Below, piece after piece: positions 11,348 to 55,700 of a DNA stretch of 64,000 bases. The notes under the pieces are model-generated. The model saw only the letters and a program-made list of their open reading frames with translations. It was not told the DNA's origin and made no database searches. The translations under genes were made by a program, and so were the position numbers. The stretch comes from Pollenia angustigena (Eukaryota; Arthropoda; Insecta; Diptera; Polleniidae). The stretch's first letter is position 1, and each line of letters begins with the position of its first letter. The stretch lies in NCBI GenBank assembly GCA_930367215.1, contig OV884056.1, forward strand, positions 93,631,285-93,695,284, written 5' to 3'.

Positions 11348-11800
11348 GGCGCTGCGAAATATCGCCCCAAAAAATAAATGAAAATTGACCCCAAATTTGG
11401 GGCTATTTTTCATAATGCAATATGGCCCCATTTTTTTAAGGAAAAATTACCCAAAAAAAATTTTAAAAAAACCCTAAAAATAAAATGAAATATGACCCTT
11501 AATTTGGGGTTATTCTTCATTATGAAAAATCACCTCAAAATTTATAATGAATTTTAACCCCAAAAAAGAACACAAAGAAAGTTACATTAAACATTTTCCG
11601 TGGAGTTCATATGTCCGAAACTAAAAATCCCAAATTTAGAATCCCGATTTCAAAATCCGGATAATTTTACAGTTTTGGTTTTAAAAATCGTACGATTGAT
11701 AGCATGGTTGGGCTTTCGGCCATGCGCAAGGATTTGTTTCTCTATGGTATAACGAACACTGGCTTTGCTTACTACAGCTTCACGTTATAGCCGGCCGTCG

Positions 11801-11838
11801 CACAGTGGCGCCATTTGAGTTTTTTCGTTGCAAAAATC
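11801..11838 (+). promoter_or_regulatory. Left Transib terminus: heptamer, 22-bp spacer, nonamer-like
   Basis: CACAGTG at 11801-11807 is identical to the V(D)J recombination-signal heptamer. After 22 bp comes GCAAAAATC at 11830-11838, which resembles the A-rich RSS nonamer at seven of nine positions. It is the presumed transposase binding and cleavage site. Confidence 0.75.
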
Positions 11839-12119
11839 ATATCTTTTGAACCGAATAAGATAATTGAACAGTTTAAACAGCATATGATAGATAACTGTTC
11901 AGCCTATGAAATGAGCGTTTGGAAAGGGTGCTACGCTCTGTAGGGGCCTAATTATGGGTTATCAAAGTTAAAATTAGTAGAAAAATCAATTTTATGGTAA
12001 CTAAAAAAAATTATTTTTACATTTTTAGATTGTTTTTATTTTTTTTCTTTAGGTTTTTATGTTTTAAATTATTACCCAACAAATTAAAAAAAAAATTATT
12101 TTTTTTTAAATTTATTTTT

Positions 12120-14171
12120 TCAATTTTCTGTAAAATATTCATCACAGTTCGTAAGAGAAGGTATATCTAAAAGACTAACCATTTCTAAACTATAATTATT
12201 TTCTAACTCTATTCGTGACTTCACATGCCGCAGGGAAGATATAAGTGGATCGGAAGATGCTGCCAACATGTTGAAGAGGTCCTCATTTTGCCTTACCCTT
12301 GATGCTTTGAATGTGTTCTGCAATCTATATTTTTTATAAAATTTGTTAAGAGACTCCTGTGCTTCTTCAGAAAGCTCTCCAATTGGCAAAGACTGGTACT
12401 CAATTATATCTTTGCCATGCGCCAATATTTTATGGACGGTCGGGGTCAACTTCTTCTGTGGATACATTTCTGCTAAAAGAGATGCAGTTTTCGACGCATA
12501 TTCTCCATATTTTGTAGAATTGACATTTTCTTTGCAGTTTAAAACATCCAAGATCGTTCCCAATCTTTTCACGATTTGATTGTCAATTCCAGTGATTCTA
12601 GTTACTGCCTCATCATTTTCAAAAAATCTCCTAGAAGTGTTTCCATCGTTTGAGTTACCGTATCCGTGCTTGGGACAGTCTACTTTTAGTCCAACTTGTT
12701 TAAAAAAAGCATCCTGTATTTGCTTCTTTCTGATCTTTTCCTTATCCTTTATTGATGTATTTTCATCGAAGTTTTCCTCCTCTTGTGGTAGGGTATACGC
12801 CAGTTTTAGCAAGAATTCCATACACCTTATCCTTGCGTGCAATGGTGACATTCCATATTCGTAATTCTCCTCATTTGTAGAATCGTTTAAATTACCAAAG
12901 TTCTTCTGACTCTTTTTGCAAATCGGGCATGACATTGTTGAGGTTGTTCCTGTCAGTTCGTTTACGACTTTTCCGTCAACCATGGTCAGATGGAACTCGT
13001 AATTGCATTCAATATATTTTCCTTCTCCAATTTGCAGCTTTGTAGGCTTAATCTTGCTTATTTGTTCTTCAATGTCCTTCACCGTGGTCCTTATGAGTTC
13101 TGCCGATTCCCTTGCAAACTGAAACATTATTGGTCGGCAATAATGCACTGATGACGGACGTGGATTTTTCCAGTGAAGGGAAACATCCGATTTAAGCCGC
13201 AAAGGAACAACAGATGCCATAAACATATTTCCGTCCGATATTGTAGCGTCATCGGAAGATATCCTTTGCTTATAAACGCTTTGTCCGGATGATCCATCGC
13301 AGCCCCATTTGCTGATCAATGTCAACTTCTCAGGAAGAATTTTCACCTCATTTTCAGGAAGACTCTCCAACAACCGTTTTGCTGTATGGCCCATGAGATC
13401 CTGCAGATTGGCTTTCGCAGAGACTTCCGTAAATTCCGTATGCAGTGGTCGTGAATTTATTTTGGCTTGCGTAATATGCTTGTATCCGGGTAAAACGTCA
13501 GCGCCGTGTCGCGTTAAAGATGCCCGTAGTTTCTCATATTTCTCTTTGGAAAGTTCTAAGTCCATAAACAAGGCCAAGGCTTCTTCGGAACCATACTTTT
13601 TAATGTGTGCGTTTGTGGGCGTGGGAATGCTTTCCTTAATCCTTTTTAGTCGCAGTGGGCTTGCATCAGCAACAGATTTGGTTATGTGCGACCTAACTCT
13701 TTCACTATCCTTTGTAAATTTAATAGACAGCGCTTCCGATAATTGCTTCGTGGTCAAGTCATTGGTGGCATCGGCAAGTTTCCTCTTTCTTGTGAAAATT
13801 GAACACTCCTCAATACTTTTTTTTGGCCTTCCTTTTGCTCCTCTGGTTGATGTGGTGGGTTTATCTACTGCCAATATATCCAGGATGGTATCTTCATTAA
13901 GCCAGTCCTCGTATTTGGAGTTGAAGTTCTGAATGGTTCGATTAGATTTCACCCATTTTGCCTTAATATTTGCATATATCAGATAAAAATTATTTTTTAT
14001 AATTTCGCTTCTCTCAATATTTCCGTATAAGCTATCAAGTTCTTCTAAAGCAGCTTCCGTGAAAAAATTTGGTGTGGTTGACTTTCTAAACAGTTCAAAT
14101 AATTTAAAATTGTTCAACGCCATGTTTTCAGTACTTAAATTGTTTAATGGTTTCAGTAATTGTTGCGCCAA
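12120..14171 (-). CDS. Transib (RAG1-like) DDE transposase, intact
   Basis: A 683-residue protein that should excise and insert the surrounding element by a RAG1-type cut-and-transfer reaction. Visible features: a basic AT-hook-like GRPKK (114-118), comparable in place and kind to the GGRPR start of the RAG1 nonamer-binding domain; the first catalytic Asp in KWGCDGSSGQS (D292); the second in TMVDGKVVN (D399); a zinc-site pair CPIC (C415, C418); a second pair in VHKILAHG (H580, H585); and the third acid in LSEEAQESLNK (E606). RAG1 has the same order of catalytic D, D, E with CxxC and H-x4-H zinc ligands between the second Asp and the Glu. The start is the first ATG of an open frame with no internal stop or intron. 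Length is normal for Transib. No neighbouring gene belongs to it. Activity is inferred, not shown. Confidence 0.93.
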   Translation of the reverse strand: MAQQLLKPLNNLSTENMALNNFKLFELFRKSTTPNFFTEAALEELDSLYGNIERSEIIKNNFYLIYANIKAKWVKSNRTIQNFNSKYEDWLNEDTILDILAVDKPTTSTRGAKGRPKKSIEECSIFTRKRKLADATNDLTTKQLSEALSIKFTKDSERVRSHITKSVADASPLRLKRIKESIPTPTNAHIKKYGSEEALALFMDLELSKEKYEKLRASLTRHGADVLPGYKHITQAKINSRPLHTEFTEVSAKANLQDLMGHTAKRLLESLPENEVKILPEKLTLISKWGCDGSSGQSVYKQRISSDDATISDGNMFMASVVPLRLKSDVSLHWKNPRPSSVHYCRPIMFQFARESAELIRTTVKDIEEQISKIKPTKLQIGEGKYIECNYEFHLTMVDGKVVNELTGTTSTMSCPICKKSQKNFGNLNDSTNEENYEYGMSPLHARIRCMEFLLKLAYTLPQEEENFDENTSIKDKEKIRKKQIQDAFFKQVGLKVDCPKHGYGNSNDGNTSRRFFENDEAVTRITGIDNQIVKRLGTILDVLNCKENVNSTKYGEYASKTASLLAEMYPQKKLTPTVHKILAHGKDIIEYQSLPIGELSEEAQESLNKFYKKYRLQNTFKASRVRQNEDLFNMLAASSDPLISSLRHVKSRIELENNYSLEMVSLLDIPSLTNCDEYFTEN

Positions 14172-14210
14172 CTTTCAGTCGTAGACTAATCCAGGCATTA
14201 TGCTTATTTT

Positions 14211-14507
14211 GCAATATATAGGCTTATGCTACCATGCCGAAAAATGTACCTGTTCCCTACATACATATGGATTTAGGCTGAATAATGCATTTTTATATTA
14301 TGCACGTGTCCAAATAAGATTTGTGCCTACCTGTAGTCAATATTGTTCTTGACCATTTGCAATATATAGGCTTATGCTACCATGCCGAAAAATTTACCTG
14401 TTCCCTGCATACAAATGGAATTAGGCTGAATAATGCAATTTTGATATTATGCACGTGTCCAAATAAGATTTGTGCCTACCTGTAGTCAATATTGTTCTTG
14501 ACCATTT
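14211..14507. repeat. Tandem duplication, about 148 bp x 2, upstream of the transposase
   Basis: Two adjacent units (14211-14358 and 14359-14507) differ at only a few positions. Each contains TATAGGCTTATGCTACCATG, a GCACGTGTCC word with an E-box-like CACGTG, and a TGCCTACCTGTAGTCAATAT block. They lie within 340 bp upstream of the transposase start, so they may double a promoter or 5'-leader segment. Confidence 0.85.
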
Positions 14508-15107
14508 GTACGCCAAAGTATTGTTTAAGTGAGGTACGTACCTGCTAATTTCAATGAGTAGTTTTTTTAGATTTTAGATCAAACTACTGTCATACAATTT
14601 CTGCAACCATGTCTTTTTAACCTTTTTTACCTCTAGAAGCCAAACGGGCACGTACGGGCAGATAAAATTTTTGAATTATGTATAGAAATAATCAAAGAAC
14701 AGATTTTGCAAATATGGCAAATAGAAAAATATAGATTTTTGTTATTTTCCGTCAAAGTTGAAAAATAGTGAAAAAACGGATAGTTTTTAAATAGTGATTT
14801 ACCAGGAGAAACACAAAGCAAACAGTTCATTTTTTTTTTATCATTACACATTTAATAAATGCATCAATCAATACAAACAAAAAATAAGGCGATTCGTTAC
14901 CTATTTTTCGTGATATTACACCTGAAATCGCAACAAATTTACTAAAAATTGTGTGTTTTTTTGAAAACCGAAAGTCGGTCAACTTTGAACGGCTATATCT
15001 TCTAAACTAAAAATGTGATATTATTAAGAGTGGCAGATTTGAAATCGTTGAAAAGTTTCCTATAACATGAGTTTATTCAAAACTTCGTCGGCGCTCATGA
15101 AAATTTT

Positions 15108-15146
15108 GATTTTTGCAACCTCGTTTGTTCTACGGGCGCTACTGTG
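15108..15146 (-). promoter_or_regulatory. Right Transib terminus: heptamer-like, 23-bp spacer, nonamer-like
   Basis: Reading inward from the end on the minus strand: CACAGTA (15140-15146, one change from the RSS heptamer), 23 bp of spacer, then GCAAAAATC (15108-15116), the same nonamer-like word as at the left end. The spacers are 22 and 23 bp, so both ends look like 23-type signals. Confidence 0.75.
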
Positions 15147-15151
15147 CGTCG

Positions 15152-15500
15152 GCCGGGCGCAAAGCTTTTTTTCTCTATGGTATAACGAACACTGGCTTCG
15201 CTAACTAAAGCTTCTCTGTATAAGCGGCCTTCGGCCGCGTGAAAGGATTTTCTTCTCTTTGGTATAACGAACACTGGCTTCGCTCACTAAAGCTTCACTA
15301 CATAGCCGGCCTCGGCCGGGCGCAAGGATTTTCTTTTCTATGGTACAACGAACTCTCGCTTCGCTCAGTTAAGCTTCTCTAGGTAACCGGCCTTCGGCCG
15401 GGCTCAAGGATTTTTTCCTCTATTGTATAACAAACACCGGCTTCGCTAACTAAAGCATCTCTGCATAACCGGCAAGGATTTTCTCTACTTTGGTATAAGA
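15152..15500. repeat. Foldback-arm satellite, about 82-bp units
   Basis: Four diverged units each contain a GGCCGGGCGCAAGGATTTT-like block, a GGTATAACGAACACTGGCTT-like block and CTAAAGCTTC. Each carries the short palindrome GGCCTTCGGCC. The same unit recurs at 11720-11795, in reverse at 15890-16300, and in the foldbacks at 40.7-44 kb. Confidence 0.8.
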
Positions 15501-15520: not shown

Positions 15521-16673
15521 GGCGGTGCGCAAAATGACCCCAGGAAATATGGCCCCAAAAGGAAAATGAAAAACGGCCCCAAAATTTTCAATGAGACACA
15601 ACAACACGCAATTTTGGCGCCGTTTTTTTGTTTTTTTTGGGGTTATTTTTCATTTTTTCGTTAGGGTGTTTTTGCATTTTAAGTGGAATGAAAAATGACC
15701 CCAATAACAAGGAATGAAAAATGGCCCCAAATAAAATCACAATTTTTACTTTGGGGCTTTTTTTCATCTACTTATACAAAATGCAAGTTTAAAGAAATGA
15801 AAAATCACCCCAAACATTTTTACACAAACTTATATAAAATTCTATGTAAAAGTTTCTAGGGATAACATAAAAAACCCGAATTCTTATACCAAAGTAGAGA
15901 AAATCCTTGCCGGTTATGCAGAGATGCTTTAGTAAGCGAAGCCGGTGTTTGTTATACCCTAGAGGAAAAAATCCTTGAGCCCGGCCGAAGGCCGGCTATT
16001 ACGAGAAGAGTTCGTTATACCATAGAAAAGAAAATCCTTGCGCACGGCCGAAGGCCGGCTATGTAGTGAAGCTTTAGTGAGCGAAGCCAGTGTTCGTTAT
16101 ACCAAAGAGAAGAAAATTCTTTCACCCGGCCGAAGGCCGGCTATACAGAGAAGCTTTAGTTAGCGAAGCCAGTGTTCGTTATACCATAGAGAAAAAAATC
16201 CTTGCGCCCGGCCGAAGGCCGGCTATAACGTAGAGCTTTAGCAAGCAAAGCCAGTGTTCGTTATACCATAGAGAAAAAAATCCTTGTGCATGGCCGAAAG
16301 CCCAACCGTGCTATCAATCGTACGATTTTTAAAACCAAAACTGTATAATTATCCGGATTTTGAAATCGGGATTCTAAATTTGGGATTTTTAGTTTTGGGC
16401 ATATGAACTCCACCGAAAATGTTTAATGTCTTTGTGTTCTTTTTTAGGGTTAAAATTCATTATAAATTTTGAGGTGATTTTTCATAATGAAGAATAACCC
16501 CAAATTTAGGGTCATATTTCATTTTATTTTTAGGGTTATTTTTAATTTTTTTGGGGTAATTTTTCATTAAAAAAATGGGGCCATATTGCATTATGAAAAA
16601 TAGCCCCAAATTTGGGGTCAATTTTCATTTATTTTTTGGGGCCATATTTCCTGGGGCCATATTTCGCAGCGCC
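15521..16673. mobile_element. Nested foldback element F2 inside F1, 9-bp TSD
   Basis: A 1153-bp element that starts GGCGGTGCGCAAAATGACCC and ends ATATTTCGCAGCGCC. The direct repeat TTATACTAT flanks it at 15512-15520 and 16674-16682. Its left end matches the right end of F1 and the reverse, so it sits inverted relative to F1. The arms have the same satellite units and GGGGCCATTTTTCAT-like words. There is no coding frame. It must have arrived after F1. Confidence 0.88.
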
Positions 16674-17650: not shown

Positions 17651-17764
17651 TATCGGGTGATTTTTTAGCTATTATCTTTTTGGCAACACTGGTTTAAACA
17701 GCTGACGCACGTTTCATGTTTTGTTTCACTGTCAAACATCTTCAGTTTGGTCTATAATTTAACC

Positions 17765-18487
17765 ATGAATCGTCTTACAAACGAACAACGCTTGCAAATT
17801 ATTGAATTTTATTATCAAACCGCGTGCTCTGTTAAGAAAGTTCATCGCGCGCTTCTTCCATTTTATGGTCAGTTTAATCGACCCACTGAAGCGGCTATTC
17901 GGTACGTTAATAAGCAGAATTGTCGATTTTGGAGTGAAGATCAGCCAGAAGCATTGCAAGAGCTACCAATGCATCCAGAAAAAGTCACAGTTTGGTGCGG
18001 TCTATGTGCTGGTGGCATCATTGGACCGTACTTCTTCAAAGATGATGCGAATCGTAACGTAACTGTGAATGGTGAGCGCTACCGTGAGATGATATCCAAC
18101 TTTTTTTTGCCCAAAATGCAAGACCTTGACTTGCGTGACATGTGGTTTCAACAAGATGGTGCCACATGCCACACAGCACGCTTAACAGTGGACTTATTGA
18201 GAGGCGAGTTCGGTGAACATTTTATTTCACGTTCGGGACCGGTCAATTGGCCGCCTAGATCGTGCGATTTAACGCCTTTAGACTATTTTTTGTGGGGCTA
18301 TGTTAAAGCTCATGTCTATACACACATGCCCGCTTCAATTGACGCATTGGAAGACAACATTGAAGCATTTATTCATGAGATACCGGCCGAAATGTTGCAA
18401 AGAGTATGCCAAAATTGGACTAAGCGGATGGACCATTTGAGGCGCAGTCACGGTCAACATTTGCATGAAATAATCTTCAAACATTAA
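17765..18487 (+). CDS. Internally deleted DD41D mariner transposase, open frame
   Basis: 240 codons from the ATG of MNRLTNEQR; an upstream in-frame ATG at 17747 is less likely. The N-terminal helix-turn-helix (residues 5-46, SVKKVHRALLPF) joins directly to YVNKQNCRFW, so the second DNA-binding part and the stretch with the first catalytic Asp are missing. The copy at 50827-51749 still has that Asp, in LDEAHFGLNGYVN. The rest is complete: WCGLCAGGIIGPYFF, the second Asp in FQQDGATCHT (D131) and the third in RSCDLTPLDYFLWG (D173), 41 residues apart, which is the DD41D spacing of rosa-type elements. Family members are usually about 340 residues. The product should be catalytically dead but could still bind DNA. 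Confidence 0.82.
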   Translation: MNRLTNEQRLQIIEFYYQTACSVKKVHRALLPFYGQFNRPTEAAIRYVNKQNCRFWSEDQPEALQELPMHPEKVTVWCGLCAGGIIGPYFFKDDANRNVTVNGERYREMISNFFLPKMQDLDLRDMWFQQDGATCHTARLTVDLLRGEFGEHFISRSGPVNWPPRSCDLTPLDYFLWGYVKAHVYTHMPASIDALEDNIEAFIHEIPAEMLQRVCQNWTKRMDHLRRSHGQHLHEIIFKH

Positions 18488-28009: not shown

Positions 28010-28946
28010 TCGGGTGATTGTTTAGCTATTATCTTTTTGGCAACACTGGTTTAAACACTTGACGCACGTTTCGTGTTTTGTTTCACTGTCAAACATCTTC
28101 AGTTTGATCTATAATTTAACCATGAATCGGCTTACAAATGAACAACGCTTGCAAATTATTGAATTTTATTATCAAAATGCGTGCTCTGTTAAGAAAGTTC
28201 ATCGCGCGCTTCTTCCATTTTATGGTCAATTTAATCGACCCACTGAAGCGGCTATTCGGTACGTTAATAAGCAGAATTGTCGATTTTGGAGTGAAGATCA
28301 GCCAGAAGCATTGCAATAGCTACCAATGCATCCAGAAAAAGTCACAGTTTGGTGCGGTTTATGGGCTGGTGGCATCATTGGACCGTACTTCTTCAAAGAT
28401 TATGCGAATCGTAACGTAACTGTGAATGGTGAGCGCTACCGCTACGTATCCAAGTTTTTTTTTGCCCAAAATGCAAGAGCTTGACTTGCATGACATGTGG
28501 TTTCAACAAGACGGTGCCACATGCCTCACAGCACGCTTAACAATGGACTTATTGAGAGGCGAGTTCGGTGAACATTGTATTTCACGTTCGGGACCGATCA
28601 ATTGGCCGCCTAGATCGTGTGATTTAACGCCTTTAGACTACTTTTTGTGGGGCTATGTTAAAGCTCATGTCTATACACACATGCCCGCTTCAATTGACGC
28701 ATTGGAAGACAACATTGAAGCATTTATTCATGAGATACCGGCCGAAATGTTGGAAAGAGCATGCCAAAATTGGACCAAGCGGACGGACCATTTAAGGCGC
28801 AGTCACGGTCAACATTTGCATGAAATAATCTTCAAACATTAAATTATTTGGACCGTTCTATCGATTCAAATAGAGATTTCATGCCTTTTTCAGAATTTTA
28901 TGTGTTTTTTTCAAAACTTTCCTATAGCTCTTAAAACATCACCCAT
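28010..28946 (+). mobile_element. DD41D (rosa-like) mariner, copy 2
   Basis: 937 bp with the same ends as copy 1 (TCGGGTGATT and the complement of a TGGGTGATGTTTTAAGAGCT-type right end), in TA at 28008-28009 and 28947-28948. It shares the exact internal deletion junction of copy 1 (RPTEAAIR joined to YVNKQNCRFW), so the two descend from one deletion derivative. Confidence 0.87.
28122..28842 (+). pseudogene. Broken DD41D mariner transposase
   Basis: The frame opens with MNRLTNEQRLQIIEFYYQ and is cut by a TAG at 28317-28319, where copy 1 has GAG. A small indel near 28440-28465 shifts the rest to another frame. Downstream, FQQDGATC and CDLTPLDYFLWG with 41-residue spacing and the C-terminal HEIIFKH survive. 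The segment with the first catalytic Asp is absent, as in copy 1. It is non-functional. Confidence 0.88.
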
Positions 28947-40717: not shown

Positions 40718-42180
40718 GGCTGTAGGAAATATCGCCCAAAGAAAAATGGCCCAAAAAAAAAATGAAAAATCGCCCAAATGAAGAATCGCCCAAGCGAACA
40801 TGAAAAATTACCCAAAAAGGTAAATATGAAATTTTGCCCAAAAAAAAACGAAAAAGGGCCCAAAAAGAAAATGAAAAATGACCCAAAAAGCATAAACGAA
40901 TTTTTTCTCAAAAAAATAAAAAAAAAAAATACTAAATTTGCAAAAAAGTGTTTATTATTCATATAAATTTAAGTGACATGTCATAACGTCCAGTGTCGTA
41001 GTGTCCTTGGACACTTTTAAAGTGTCATAATGTCCATCGAAGACGATTGCGAGGACGTTATGACACTTTGCAACGTCCGCAACTTAACTTATAATCAAAA
41101 ATGTGTAATTTTTTTTTTAAAATACCGTTAAAATTTCAAGTGATTTTTTTAAAGATACTTATTTAACCATAATATGGTTGTCGGTGACAATGATTTGGTT
41201 AAATTAAACATAATATGGATAAAATATTTTTATAGCTTTTACTCCGGGTGTATGTATTAAATATATATATCCAAAATAAGGATTTCATCTTCTATGGTAT
41301 AACAAATACTGGCTTCGCTAACTAAAGCTTCACTGTATAGCCGGCCTTCGGCCGGGCGCAAGGATTTTCTCCTCTATGGTACAACAAAGACCGGCTTCGC
41401 TAACTAAAGCTTCTCTGTATAGCCGGCCTTCGGCCGGGCGCAAGGATTTTCTCCTTTATGGTCTAACAAAAACCGGTTTCGCTAAGTAAAGCTTCGAAAA
41501 ACTGCCTTGTTTCCGAACAAGGCCGACTACGCAGAGAAGCTTTAGTTAGCGAAGCCGGTGTTTGTTATACCATAGAGGAGAAAATCCTTGCGCTCGGCCG
41601 AAGGCCGGCTATACAGAGAAGCTTTAGTTAGCGAAGCCGGTCTTTGTTATACCATAGAGGAGAAAATCCTTGCGCCCGGCCAAAGGCCGGCGATACAGAG
41701 AAGCTTTAGTTAGCGAAGCCAGTATTTGTTATACCATAGAAGAGAAAATCCTTATTTACGATATATATGTATATATTTAATATATACACCCAGAGAAAAA
41801 AGCTACAAAACCATTTTTAAAAAAATTCTACCGATATTATGTTTAATTTAACCAAATCATTGTCGCCGATAACCATATAATGGTTAAATTAGTTTCTTGA
41901 AAAATAGTTTTGTTGTTTGCAACCATAATAAAACATGGTTTTCTCTGCTATGTAAGATTATGGTAGAATTTTAAAAATAGCCCATTTTTTTTGGGCCATT
42001 TTTCATACAACATTTTTGTTGTATGAAACGAAAAATCACCCAACAATAACGATAAATAGCCCAAAAATTTTGGGCCATTTTTCATATGAAATCAGGCCCA
42101 ATTTTACATGCAATTTTTTTGGGCGATTTTTCATTTTTTTTTTTTTGGCGATTTTTCTTTGGGCGATATTTCCTACAGCC
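40718..42180. mobile_element. Foldback element F3, 9-bp TSD GTGATTTAT
   Basis: 1463 bp, ends GGCTGTAGGAAATATCGCCC and its complement. GTGATTTAT is duplicated at 40709-40717 and 42181-42189. Order: a zone of AAATCGCCCAAA-like words; a GTCATAACGTCC/GGACGTTATGAC hairpin-rich zone (about 40975-41085); an AACCATAATATGGTT block; then satellite units (GGCCTTCGGCCGGGCGCAAGG, GGCTTCGCTAACTAAAGCTT) first in one and then in the other orientation around 41505. A mirror of the AACCAT and CCCAAA zones follows. No coding frame; the small frames are repeat translations. Confidence 0.9.
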
Positions 42181-42492: not shown

Positions 42493-43976
42493 GGCTGTAG
42501 GAAATATCGCCCAAAGAAAAATCGCCCAAAAAAAAAAATGAAAAATCGCCCAAAAAAATTGCATGTAAAATTGGGCCTGATTTCATATGAAAAATGGCCC
42601 AAAATTTTTGGGCTATTTATCGTTATTGTTGGGTGATTTTTCGTTTTTTAAATTCGGGTGATTTTTCATTATGAAAAATCACCCAAAAATGTTGTATGAA
42701 AAATGGCCCAAAAAAAATGGGCTATTTTTAAAATTCTACCATAATCTTACATAGCAGAGAAAACCATGTTTTATTATGGTTGCAAACAACAAAACTATTT
42801 TTCAAGAAACTAATTTAACCATTATATGGTTGTCGGCGACAATGATTTGGTTAAATTAAACATAATATCGGTAGAATTTTTTTAAAAATGGTTTTGTAGC
42901 TTTTTTCTCTGGGTGTATATATTAAATATATACATATATATCGAAAATAAGGATTTTCTCTTCTATGGTATAGCAAATACTGGCTTCGCTAACTAAAGCT
43001 TCTCTGTATCGCCGGCCTTCGGCCGGGCGCAAGGATTTTCTCCTCTATGGTATAACAAAGACCGGCTTCGCTAACTAAAGCTTCTCTGTATAGCCGGCCT
43101 TCGGCCGGGCGCAAGGATTTTCTCCTCTATGGTATAACAAACACCGGCTTCGCTAACTAAAGCTTCTCTGCGTAGTCGGCCTTGTTCGGAAACAAGGCAG
43201 TTTTTCGAAGCTTTACTTAGCGAAACCGGTTTTTGTTAGACCATAAAGGAGAAAATCCTTGCGCCCGGCCGAAGGCCGGCTATAAAGAGAAGCTTTAGTT
43301 AGCGAAGCCGGTCTTTGTTGTACCATAGAGGAGAAAATCCTTGCGCCCGGCCGAAGGCCGGCTATACAGAGAAGCTTTAGTTAGCGAAGCCAGTATTTGT
43401 TATACCATAGAAGATGAAATCCTTATTTTGGATATATATATTTAATATATACACCCGGAGTAAAAGCTATAAAAATATTTTATCCATATTATGTTTAATT
43501 TAACCAAATCATTGTCACCGACAACCATATTATGGTTAAATAAGTATCTTTAAAAAAATCACTTGAAATTTTAACGGTATTTTAAAAAAAATTTACACAT
43601 TTTTGATTATAAGCAACGTCCGCTGCAAAGTGTCATAACGTCCTCGCCCTCGTCTTCGATGGACATTATGACACTTTAAAAGTGTCCAAGGACACTACGA
43701 CACTGGACGTTATGACATGTCACCTAAATTTATATGAATAATAAACACTTTTTGCAAATTTAGTAATTTTTTTTTTTTTTTTTTGGGAAAAAATTCGTTT
43801 ATGCTTTTTGGGTCATTTTTCATTTTCTTTTTGGGCCCTTTTTCGTTTTTTTTGGGCAAAATTTCATATTTACCTTTTTGGGTCATTTTTCATGTTCGCT
43901 TGGGCGATTCTTCATTTGGGCGATTTTTCATTTTTTTTTTTGGGCCATTTTTCTTTGGGCGATATTTCCTACAGCC
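42493..43976. mobile_element. Foldback element F4, inverted near-copy of F3, 9-bp TSD GTGTTTTTG
   Basis: 1484 bp with the same ends as F3. GTGTTTTTG is duplicated at 42484-42492 and 43977-43985. Its sequence is the reverse complement of F3 along the whole length, including the asymmetric GTCATAACGTCC zone (about 43615-43720), with few differences. Distinct target duplications show that it is a separate insertion and not an inverted duplication of the locus. Confidence 0.9.
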
Positions 43977-52637: not shown

Positions 52638-54668
52638 TTAATTGTAATGTTTAAAAATTTCTTTTTTGAATTGCAAAGCGTTACTAATAAATTGTAGATT
52701 TGGCGGTAGCTCGTTCCAAAGACGTATAGCAAAAATATAAAAATGATGTTCAGAGAAAGAGGTTCTATATCTGATTTGTATCAAATCATTATATCTTCTA
52801 GATCGAGTAGGGACTAATCTGTTAAATAAGTATTTTGGTTCACTTGTGAAAAGAATTTTATGAAAAAGTAACAAAGTTCTTATCTCCAAAAGATCAATAA
52901 TGTTAACCCCAAAAAGACGTTTCTCAAATGCTGAGATGTGATCATATTTTCTTAAGTTGAAAACATATCTTAATATGGAGTTATAAGTCACGGTAAGTTT
53001 TTTCTTAGTAGTAGAATCAAGGTTGGCAAACACTTCACATCCATACAACAAAGTAGGTATAAGATAGGTTTTGGCAAGCAAAATACGAATATTGAGTGGG
53101 GTAAGGTATTGAGTAGTCCAAAGTGTACGTATCATGGAGTAGGTTTTTCCGGCTGCGGCATTAATATGATCAGACCAAGAAAGAGTATTATTAAAGATGA
53201 TACCCAAATTTTTGGTTGAGTTTACAACTTGAATTGGTTGATTATTAATAGATACTGTTGGTTCAGTAATCAAGTTTACTGACTTACGGGTTATAATTAG
53301 GCATTTCGATTTAGATGGATTAATGCATAGTCCATTAGCTGTTGCCCAAGTGTGTACATTAGCCAGATCTACATTCAATTTATCCACGCAAGTAGTTATT
53401 TTCTCTATTTTACTATTTATATATATCTGCACATCGTCAGCATACAAATGAATTCTGCAGTATGATAGATGTTTTACTAGATCATTAATATAGATCGAAA
53501 AAAGAAGTGGACCCAGAATTGAGCCTTGAGGCACACCCTTAATCACAGGCAAAGCACGTGAAATTTGGTTATTAGAAAACACAGATTGCAAACGTCCAGA
53601 TAAGTAAGACGATATGAGTTTGGTTGACGAGGATGAAAAATTAAACATTGTTAAAAGTTTCGTGCATAGAATATTGTGGTCGACCGTGTCAAATGCTTTA
53701 GAGTGATCTAAAAGAACAAGAAAACATATATCACCATCATCAATACTTTCACGTATATCTTCCGACACATCAATAAGGGCGGTAACGCAACTGTGCTTAC
53801 TACGAAAACCTGATTGTCTATCAGTTAGCAAAGTATTATCATGTAGGTATTTGTTCATTTGTTGGTAAAGCAGCTTTTCATACACCTTCGATAAATATGG
53901 TAGAATTGCAACAGGCCTGAAATCATTATTGGACTTTGGTATAGGAATAATTTTGGCATATTTCCAATTTTTTGGAAATTCACTTTTCGTAATTATTGTG
54001 TTAAAAATATATGTTAGATAAGGTAACACTGCAGGCAACATAGCTTTAACAAATTTGGGATGCAATCCATCATATCCAACAGCATTCGATTTTACAGCAC
54101 AACAGCTTGAGAGTACATCTAACTGCGTTACACAATTGAAGTAAAACCTGTTTTCATCTGGTGTGGGATTGTGAATGTCATTATAGAAATTATAATTTGC
54201 GGGAACATTAGGAGTATTTATAAACGACTCGTTAAGCATTTCCACATCTATTTTAGTGGAAGTATTTGGTTGAGTTTTTCCAACACCTATTTCACGAATA
54301 GTCTTCCAAGTTTTTGACGATCCTACAGCAGAATTAAAACGATGGTAATAATACGCAGCTTTAGCACATCGTATCTTTTTGTTGACTTCTGTTCTCATCT
54401 TACAATACTCTTCATGTAAATACGATGTTTTAAATCGCTTCCAGCTTTTGTATGCAAAATCCCTGCGAGAAATCATTCGTTTTATATCCATATTAAACCA
54501 TGGTTTGTTTTTAAAATTTTTATTAATTTTTTTCACAGGCACAGACATATTAAAAATGTGCAACAAATTGTGTTCAAAAAAGTTTAATTGGTCTTCAACA
54601 AGTGGCATATAATAGATCGAATCCCAATCAATTTTATAAAATTCGTTAGAAATTATATTAAAGTCCAT
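52638..54668 (-). CDS. LINE reverse transcriptase (ORF2 RT part), open frame
   Basis: 676 codons from an internal ATG; in the ancestral protein it is the continuation of the endonuclease frame upstream. RT motifs in order: FRPVAILPYLSKVYEKLL (250-267), DRQSGFRSKHS (283-293), LLDHSKAFDTVDH with the first Asp at 321, GVPQGSILGPLLFSIYINDL (378-397), LYADDVQIY with catalytic D411 and D412, then a thumb and C-terminal region ending in a FAIRLWNELPPNLQ block. There is no RNase H domain. This architecture fits the CR1/Jockey group. The RT is intact, but the ORF2 as a whole is broken, so autonomous retrotransposition is unlikely. Confidence 0.9.
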   Translation of the reverse strand: MDFNIISNEFYKIDWDSIYYMPLVEDQLNFFEHNLLHIFNMSVPVKKINKNFKNKPWFNMDIKRMISRRDFAYKSWKRFKTSYLHEEYCKMRTEVNKKIRCAKAAYYYHRFNSAVGSSKTWKTIREIGVGKTQPNTSTKIDVEMLNESFINTPNVPANYNFYNDIHNPTPDENRFYFNCVTQLDVLSSCCAVKSNAVGYDGLHPKFVKAMLPAVLPYLTYIFNTIITKSEFPKNWKYAKIIPIPKSNNDFRPVAILPYLSKVYEKLLYQQMNKYLHDNTLLTDRQSGFRSKHSCVTALIDVSEDIRESIDDGDICFLVLLDHSKAFDTVDHNILCTKLLTMFNFSSSSTKLISSYLSGRLQSVFSNNQISRALPVIKGVPQGSILGPLLFSIYINDLVKHLSYCRIHLYADDVQIYINSKIEKITTCVDKLNVDLANVHTWATANGLCINPSKSKCLIITRKSVNLITEPTVSINNQPIQVVNSTKNLGIIFNNTLSWSDHINAAAGKTYSMIRTLWTTQYLTPLNIRILLAKTYLIPTLLYGCEVFANLDSTTKKKLTVTYNSILRYVFNLRKYDHISAFEKRLFGVNIIDLLEIRTLLLFHKILFTSEPKYLFNRLVPTRSRRYNDLIQIRYRTSFSEHHFYIFAIRLWNELPPNLQFISNALQFKKEIFKHYN

Positions 54669-55474
54669 GTGCTTAAAATCGTAGTATGTTACTATATCAT
54701 TAACTGTTTGCAGTTTAAAATCATACGTTAGAAATATCAGATCGTGTTTTGAAAAGCAAGGTACCGATAGTTGTTCATAAAGTAAGACTTTGTGCTTTGT
54801 GAGTCAGTTGTTGACGTATAATGAGTTGGTACTGTACTATTAGTTGGTGTTAAGCCAAAGGTTTTCATGCAATCAATTAAATGAACTTCACATAGTAAGT
54901 TGGAATTAAAGTCACCACAAATTATAACATCCTCATAAGATACAGTAAGTGTTTCAAGTTTCTCTTGAAATATATTTAAATCAATTTTACGATTAGGTCT
55001 ATAAACACATCCAATAAGTATTTTTTTACCACAAGCAAAGATTTCAATAAACAGATATTAAATTTTTTCTCCTGGCAAAGAGGTACAGCAAACTTTACTT
55101 GAAATCCCTTCTTTTACATATATTGCTACCCCACCACCACGAGGTTCTTTTTTTCGTTGTTCAATATTACCTTGTTCAATATCACATTGTCCACCTTGAA
55201 TCTCAACTTTAGCCTTCCTATCCCAACGATACAATATAAAACCCTTCAAACCGATAATATTATCCGAAACGGATTTACCCAACCACGTTTCTGAAACACA
55301 AACTACATCAACACCGGAATTCTCAAAGATGTAACGAAATTCTTCCATCTTATACCTTAAACTTTGAGCATTAATATGACAAATATTAATACCAGATCTC
55401 TGTTTACATAAAATTCGAATCATTTCAGACGTAATGTCATTGGAACTGTAATTTAAGCTATCGTCGAACATCAT
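54669..55474 (-). pseudogene. LINE APE-type endonuclease (ORF2 N-terminus), broken
   Basis: Starts MMFDDSLNYSS at 55474. Endonuclease motifs: NICHINAQSLRYKMEEF, VVCVSETWL, YRWDR and RGGGVAIYVKEG. It reaches a TAA at 55058-55060; beyond this, translation continues with LIGCVYRPNR and VIICGDFNSN. A frame change near 54790 is followed by FSKHDLIFLTY, which corresponds to the SDH-type catalytic motif (here SKHD). So one stop and at least one frameshift separate it from the RT frame. Confidence 0.87.
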
Positions 55475-55700
55475 TATTTAAAAAAAAAAAAATATATTTT
55501 AGATATGCAACGCAAGCAAAACAAAAAAAAAAAAAAATAAAAATTTTAAGCAAACATGTTTTTTAAAAATTTTAGAAATATAAATACAGTTTAAAAAGTA
55601 TAAAAAGTTTTTAAGAAAAAATAAATAGTATATGGCAAAGCAAAAATATGATTTAATAAAGTATAATATCAAACACAAAATAAACTTTATAAGACATAAT

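What the first reader, a model, noticed from the sequence alone, without database searches (positions are those of the whole stretch)
11801..15146. Complete, apparently intact Transib transposon with a RAG1-like transposase
Seen directly: perfect 5-bp TSD (CGTCG), CACAGTG/CACAGTA ends and an uninterrupted 683-codon frame. Known: Transib is the transposon family from which the RAG1 core derives. The frame keeps D292, D399 and E606 plus CxxC (415/418) and H-x4-H (580/585), the same acids and zinc ligands as RAG1 D600, D708, E962 and C727, C730, H937, H942. Inferred: the copy is recent and may be active.
Basis: partly seen in the sequence, partly recalled or inferred. Interest (0 to 1): 0.9.

Follow-up and report, generated by a model that had tools for sequence, protein, structure and literature searches.

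The report
RAG1-like transposon outbreak in fly
This stretch is a complete Transib jumping gene, a relative of the enzyme that cuts our antibody genes, and its 35-letter 5' end (one letter free to vary) occurs 1,138 times in this genome (most likely that of the cluster fly Pollenia angustigena), so it likely spread very recently and is predicted to be still able to move.

The parts
11796..11800 (.). target-site duplication, left copy (CGTCG)
   Evidence: sequence; empty-site match
15147..15151 (.). target-site duplication, right copy (CGTCG)
   Evidence: sequence
11801..15146 (-). complete Transib element, 3346 bp; the gene reads on the minus strand, so the element's 5' end is at 15146
   Evidence: the window copy is 3346 bp; most other copies read are 3348 bp with 5 differences from it (two of them an inserted TA)
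15140..15146 (-). 5' end heptamer CACAGTA
   Evidence: CACAGTA in 47 of 48 copies, CACAGTG in 1
15108..15116 (-). nonamer-like GCAAAAATC, 23 bp inside the 5' heptamer (7 of 9 to the recalled RSS nonamer; resemblance only)
11801..11807 (+). 3' end heptamer CACAGTG
   Evidence: 48 of 48 copies
11830..11838 (+). nonamer-like GCAAAAATC, 22 bp inside the 3' heptamer (7 of 9; resemblance only)
12120..14123 (-). transposase gene, ATG to stop, 667 aa, D276/D383/E590, zinc ligands C399, C402, H564, H569
13806..13832 (-). GRP stretch (residues 98-106), the place of a nonamer-binding-like (AT-hook) region
   Evidence: G98, R99, P100 kept in at least 90% of 86 sequences; collinear but weak match to the RAG1 NBD, 0.3 bits and 6.2 bits
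14208..14508 (-). two tandem 148/149-bp units upstream of the gene; the number varies among copies (2 in 43, 1 in 3, 3 in 1, 4 in 1 of 48)
11716..11800 (+). left part of the 82-bp host repeat into which the element inserted; continues at 15149

Best explanation
This is a complete autonomous Transib cut-and-paste DNA transposon whose 5' end (35 letters, A or G allowed at one) occurs 1,138 times in a genome that is most likely that of the cluster fly Pollenia angustigena, and its RAG1-like transposase likely spread, in a very recent burst, both the full-length copies and a family of derivatives without the gene that carry the same ends. Shown: intact ends, TSDs, intact frame, near-zero divergence among 47 of the 48 copies read, discrete derivative size classes, TSDs on the 12 derivatives read. 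Inferred from HzTransib and RAG: the enzyme binds each end (heptamer, and perhaps the A-rich motif 22/23 bp further in), nicks, forms hairpins on the flanking DNA and joins the ends 5 bp apart at CGNCG. Inferred: the derivatives move by transposase supplied in trans; an exchange of 5' ends between two lineages about 4-6% diverged came before or during the burst.
Against: No transcript, protein, piRNA or population data; activity today is not shown. The one search list holds identical frames only (65 scored of 11,712), so the 48 copies read are biased to the youngest; of 35 full-size elements found by their ends, 25 are in that list and the other 10 were not read. The 5' heptamer is CACAGTA, not CACAGTG. 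Copy L010 has unequal flanks (CGACG/CGCCG), and 7 of the 47 equal TSDs are not CGNCG; of the 12 derivatives 4 are not. The nonamer-like motif is 7 of 9 and weak (39 of 6,092 control positions do as well). Pfam gave only two hits far below their cut-offs.
Confidence: 0.9

Rival explanations
1. The burst is over: a recent amplification that host silencing has already stopped, leaving intact but silent copies.
For: The sequence evidence fits this as well as a running burst; 55 of 94 paired ends sit on elements without the E590 segment, and such derivatives can titrate transposase in other transposons (recalled).
Against: Divergence is near zero and 34 of 35 full-size copies keep the exact E590 segment; neither separates 'just stopped' from 'running'.
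Confidence: 0.35
2. Recent horizontal transfer of a foreign Transib into the fly caused the burst.
For: PMC12230796 (passages) reports such a transfer of Transib1 from D. simulans into D. melanogaster, spread 2013-2016; the nearest full-length relative listed is only 62% identical.
Against: A lineage with a 3.7% diverged 5' end (L010) is also present, with 129 ends of that type, so relatives were probably resident or arrived more than once; a 95% identical 450-aa protein of unknown origin exists (P0001).
Confidence: 0.35
3. Assembly or contamination artefact.
For: Copies are almost identical, which assemblers can multiply.
Against: 47 of 48 copies read have equal flanking 5-mers, and apart from one duplicated insertion (L023/L025) their flanks differ; they lie inside a 329-Mb contig; the 100 listed variant ends lie on five contigs.
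Confidence: 0.02
4. A domesticated host gene rather than a transposon.
For: Intact frame.
Against: TIRs, TSDs and dispersed copies.
Confidence: 0.01

Closest known systems
HzTransib (Helicoverpa zea), structures 6pqn/6pqr/6pqu/6pqx/6pqy/6pr5
   Same: Homologous transposase over profile positions 174-662 and fold; CACA-type ends and 5-bp TSD (recalled for HzTransib)
   Different: 37% identity in the structural alignment. PMC8289069 (passage) says HzTransib TIRs have little or no similarity to the RSS nonamer; here both ends carry GCAAAAATC at 23/22 bp. Copy number here is far above the 'one or at most a few' stated for autonomous Transibs in PMC4411706 (passage)
Transib1 of Drosophila simulans/melanogaster
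   Same: Recent invasion by a 3-kb Transib in a fly (PMC12230796, passages)
   Different: Other element and host (not aligned here); here the ends number over a thousand and a gene-less family in several size classes is present
RAG1/RAG2 of jawed vertebrates
   Different: No RAG2-like frame seen, no 12/23 asymmetry (spacers 23 and 22), works as a transposon
ProtoRAG / BbRAGL
   Different: No RAG2-like frame found in the element

Membership tests
Transib superfamily | transposase homologous to a known Transib transposase | tested here: met
Transib superfamily | D-D-E triad and CxxC / HxxxxH zinc ligands in the RAG1 order | tested here: met
   seven of seven invariant in 21 sequences; six invariant and D383 at least 90% in 86
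Transib superfamily | 5-bp GC-rich target duplication with CGNCG preference (CGNCG from PMC4735498, passage) | tested here: met
   47 of 48 copies with equal flanks, 40 of 48 equal and CGNCG
Transib superfamily | short TIRs beginning with an RSS-like CACA heptamer | tested here: met
   CACAGTG at the 3' end of 48 of 48, CACAGTA at the 5' end of 47 of 48; the seventh base of the 5' heptamer departs from CACAGTG
Transib superfamily | hairpin-forming cleavage and 5-bp staggered joining | not testable with these tools
   needs biochemistry
RAGL / ProtoRAG | a RAG2-like second gene | tested here: not met
   the only other sense-strand frame of 60 aa or more in the element has 72 aa; a spliced gene is not excluded
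V(D)J RSS pair | 12/23 spacer asymmetry with heptamer and nonamer | tested here: not met
   spacers 23 and 22

The most novel reading that the evidence does not exclude
A live RAG1-like transposon outbreak: an autonomous Transib that swapped its 5' end (a 546-bp block, with heptamer CACAGTA instead of CACAGTG) with a gene-less relative about 4-6% diverged, then exploded to over 1,100 insertions, several hundred of them with an intact transposase, dragging along at least three deletion classes in trans. It would be a natural, still running experiment in how RAG ancestors behaved before domestication, with bipartite RSS-like ends of the 23/23 kind.
Probability: 0.35. Interest if true: 0.75.

Novelty: new member of a known kind. 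Interest (0 to 1): 0.55.

Why it matters
Autonomous Transibs were described as present in one or at most a few copies, often damaged (PMC4411706, passages). A family with probably hundreds of near-identical full-length copies and co-amplified derivatives gives a natural system to ask which end sequences a RAG-like enzyme needs, how such elements are tamed, and whether a RAG-like invasion is under way in a fly. It also offers a candidate transposase and ends for bench study.

Tried and rejected
Pfam scan of the transposase: two hits far below their cut-offs (DUF3793 E 0.083, SEA E 0.2), although many of the 120 relatives listed carry PF26100.1; the cause was not followed. Viral contigs: 18 pattern matches, none a relative. 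Host identity by the LINE protein at 52641-54803: none of the 120 hits listed bore a name; mitochondrial ND2 served instead. RSS nonamer: kept as resemblance only, since 39 of 6,092 positions inside the element and 572 of 42,628 in the window score as well at that spacing, and the two ends are not independent. A nonamer-binding-like N-terminus in Transibs is already in print (PMC9435367, passage) and my test of it is weak (0.3 bits; 6.2 bits); one RAG1 chain aligns from model residue 124 (6cik, rmsd 7.5), inconclusive. Age: 18 substitutions in 145,590 sites would be tens of thousands of generations at a recalled fly mutation rate of about 3e-9, but the copies come from a list of identical frames, so this does not date the family. 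Searches of print (open-licence library only): on Transib with other terms, on Pollenia genomes, on 'Pollenia' with 'Transib' (0 papers). In the Pollenia angustigena genome note the word start 'transpos' occurs 0 times. The 2005 Kapitonov and Jurka paper is not held; what I know of it is recalled or second-hand.

Full report
The observation. The window carries at 11801-15146 a 3346-bp element with CACAGTG and CACAGTA ends, flanked on both sides by CGTCG. The minus strand holds one long frame, 14171..12120, 683 codons from a TTG. The closest relatives begin at the residue that is M17 of that frame (P0001; P0002 and P0003; the alignment itself was cut to start there), so I take ATG 14123 as the start, giving 667 aa.

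Where it sits. The element interrupts an 82-bp tandem repeat. Joined with one CGTCG, the flanks match the opposite, uninterrupted arm at 16312-16113 over all 200 bp at 93% without a gap: a clean insertion.

How many there are. A protein search of the window's own genome (1,370,458,813 bases, 31 contigs) scored 65 of 11,712 candidates; the 65 are 100% identical over 683 residues and lie on contig 1. Pattern searches of the whole genome gave 1,138 copies of 35 nt of the 5' end, A or G allowed at position 19, 1,251 exact copies of 39 nt of the 3' end and 557 exact copies of 81 nt around E590, each with 0 hits for the reversed control. A variant 5' end with CACAGTG occurs 129 times. Each search lists only its first 100 places.

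The copies. I read 48 of the 65 (30, 18; 17 not fetched). 47 of 48 have equal 5-bp flanks and 40 of 48 are equal and CGNCG. Two of the 48 (L023, L025) share flanks and are one duplicated insertion. CGNCG occurs at 40 of 63,996 window positions. Of the first 30 frames 28 are identical in nucleotides to their consensus. Over 47 copies (L010 left out, alignment columns 600-1145 left out) there are 18 substitutions in 145,590 sites, 6 of them two sites shared by three copies. A 148/149-bp unit upstream of the gene is present twice in 43, once in 3, three times in 1 and four times in 1 copy. The window copy (L016) belongs with L004 and L036 to a minor type (positions 19 and 55).

The gene-less family. 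The listed ends reach to about 103 Mb of contig 1. There, 94 of 94 5' ends have an exact 3' end on the right side: 35 at 3.33-3.64 kb (34 with the exact E590 piece), 33 at 1.42 kb, 11 at 1.74 kb, 10 at 1.08 kb and 5 others, four of which keep the E590 piece. Of 100 3' ends, 94 pair with these; of the other 6, four pair with listed variant 5' ends (1,154, 1,111, 1,820 and 3,241 bp, from the coordinates), two do not. If the share of 35 in 94 held for all 1,138 ends, about 424 would be full-size; that is an extrapolation. Twelve derivatives were read (six, six), 12 of 12 with equal TSDs, 8 of them CGNCG. Eleven of the 12 (1,745, 1,743, 1,418-1,419, 1,343, 1,076-1,077 bp) match the autonomous element in the first 546 bp at 99.8-100% and in the last 334 bp at only 93-94%, with a middle that does not match it beyond short pieces; four representatives compared with each other are 99.4-100% alike apart from internal deletions. 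The twelfth (L059, 1,673 bp) is a plain internal deletion of the autonomous element. That the unread members of each size class are the same is inferred from their size.

End exchange. A block identical at one end and 6% diverged at the other is hard to get by simple descent, so I infer that sequence was exchanged. L010 shows the same from the other side: its first 546 bp differ by 20 substitutions from a majority-type copy, the differences end near position 668, and none follows in the compared stretch; its frame is 100% identical. Which end type is older is not settled.

The host. The mitochondrial contig's ND2 is 100% identical to Pollenia angustigena, 99% to P. rudis and 95% to P. pediculata; the next are 88%, and P. 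vagabunda is 86%. The published P. angustigena assembly spans 1370.5 Mb with six chromosomes (abstract and passages, PMC11437293), the length of G000. In that paper the word start 'transpos' does not occur.

Mechanism. Shown: ends, duplications, intact gene, homogeneity, size classes. Inferred from HzTransib and RAG: the transposase pairs two ends, cuts at the heptamer, makes hairpins on the flanks and inserts 5 bp staggered at CGNCG. Both ends carry GCAAAAATC, 23 bp (5') and 22 bp (3') inside the heptamer, 7 of 9 letters like the recalled RSS nonamer; this could be a second contact for the N-terminal GRP region, but such a resemblance at one end is met at about one position in a hundred. It is not a 12/23 pair.

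What is known. Transib, CGNCG (PMC4735498, passage), RAG1 kinship, an active HzTransib enzyme (PMC6941560, passage) and a recent Transib1 invasion in D. melanogaster (PMC12230796, passages) are known. Helicoverpa armigera is listed with 188 Transib copies (PMC7764229, table passage). PMC4411706 (passages) says that autonomous Transibs are typically present in one or at most a few copies. I found no report of this element or of a comparable number of near-identical autonomous copies in the listings and passages named under Tried and rejected. So: a new member of a known kind, in an unusual state.

Noticed in passing
window 15149-15473, 16010-16302, 41278-41495, 41519-41753, 42949-43183, 43207-43424: Arrays of an 82-bp unit in facing (inverted) pairs, like arms of a foldback-type repeat; the Transib sits in one arm of the first pair.
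   Followed up: partly
window 17669-18487 and 28426-28842: Two related open frames, the first with a DUF4817 helix-turn-helix, sharing a PPRSCDLTPLDYFLWG motif; they look like mariner-type transposase remnants.
   Followed up: partly
window 52638-54803 and 55058-55477, minus strand: Non-LTR retrotransposon: reverse transcriptase frame of 721 aa (PF00078) with what looks like an endonuclease piece in a separate frame upstream.
   Followed up: partly
L062, L063 (G000:C1:83.92 and 83.94 Mb): Two COX1 copies over the whole profile, read with TGA as in mitochondria, 21 kb apart in a nuclear contig: mitochondrial insertions.
   Followed up: no
G000:C2:201341349, 201345921, 201350493: Three variant (CACAGTG) 5' ends exactly 4,572 bp apart: the element seems caught in a tandem duplication.
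   Followed up: no
G000:C1:120.82-120.85 Mb: Four exact E590 segments within 34 kb, a local cluster of copies.
   Followed up: no
P0001: A 450-aa protein 95% identical to the transposase, 20 member sequences, from an unnamed ENA contig of 2,102 bases: a close relative elsewhere or a transcript.
   Followed up: no
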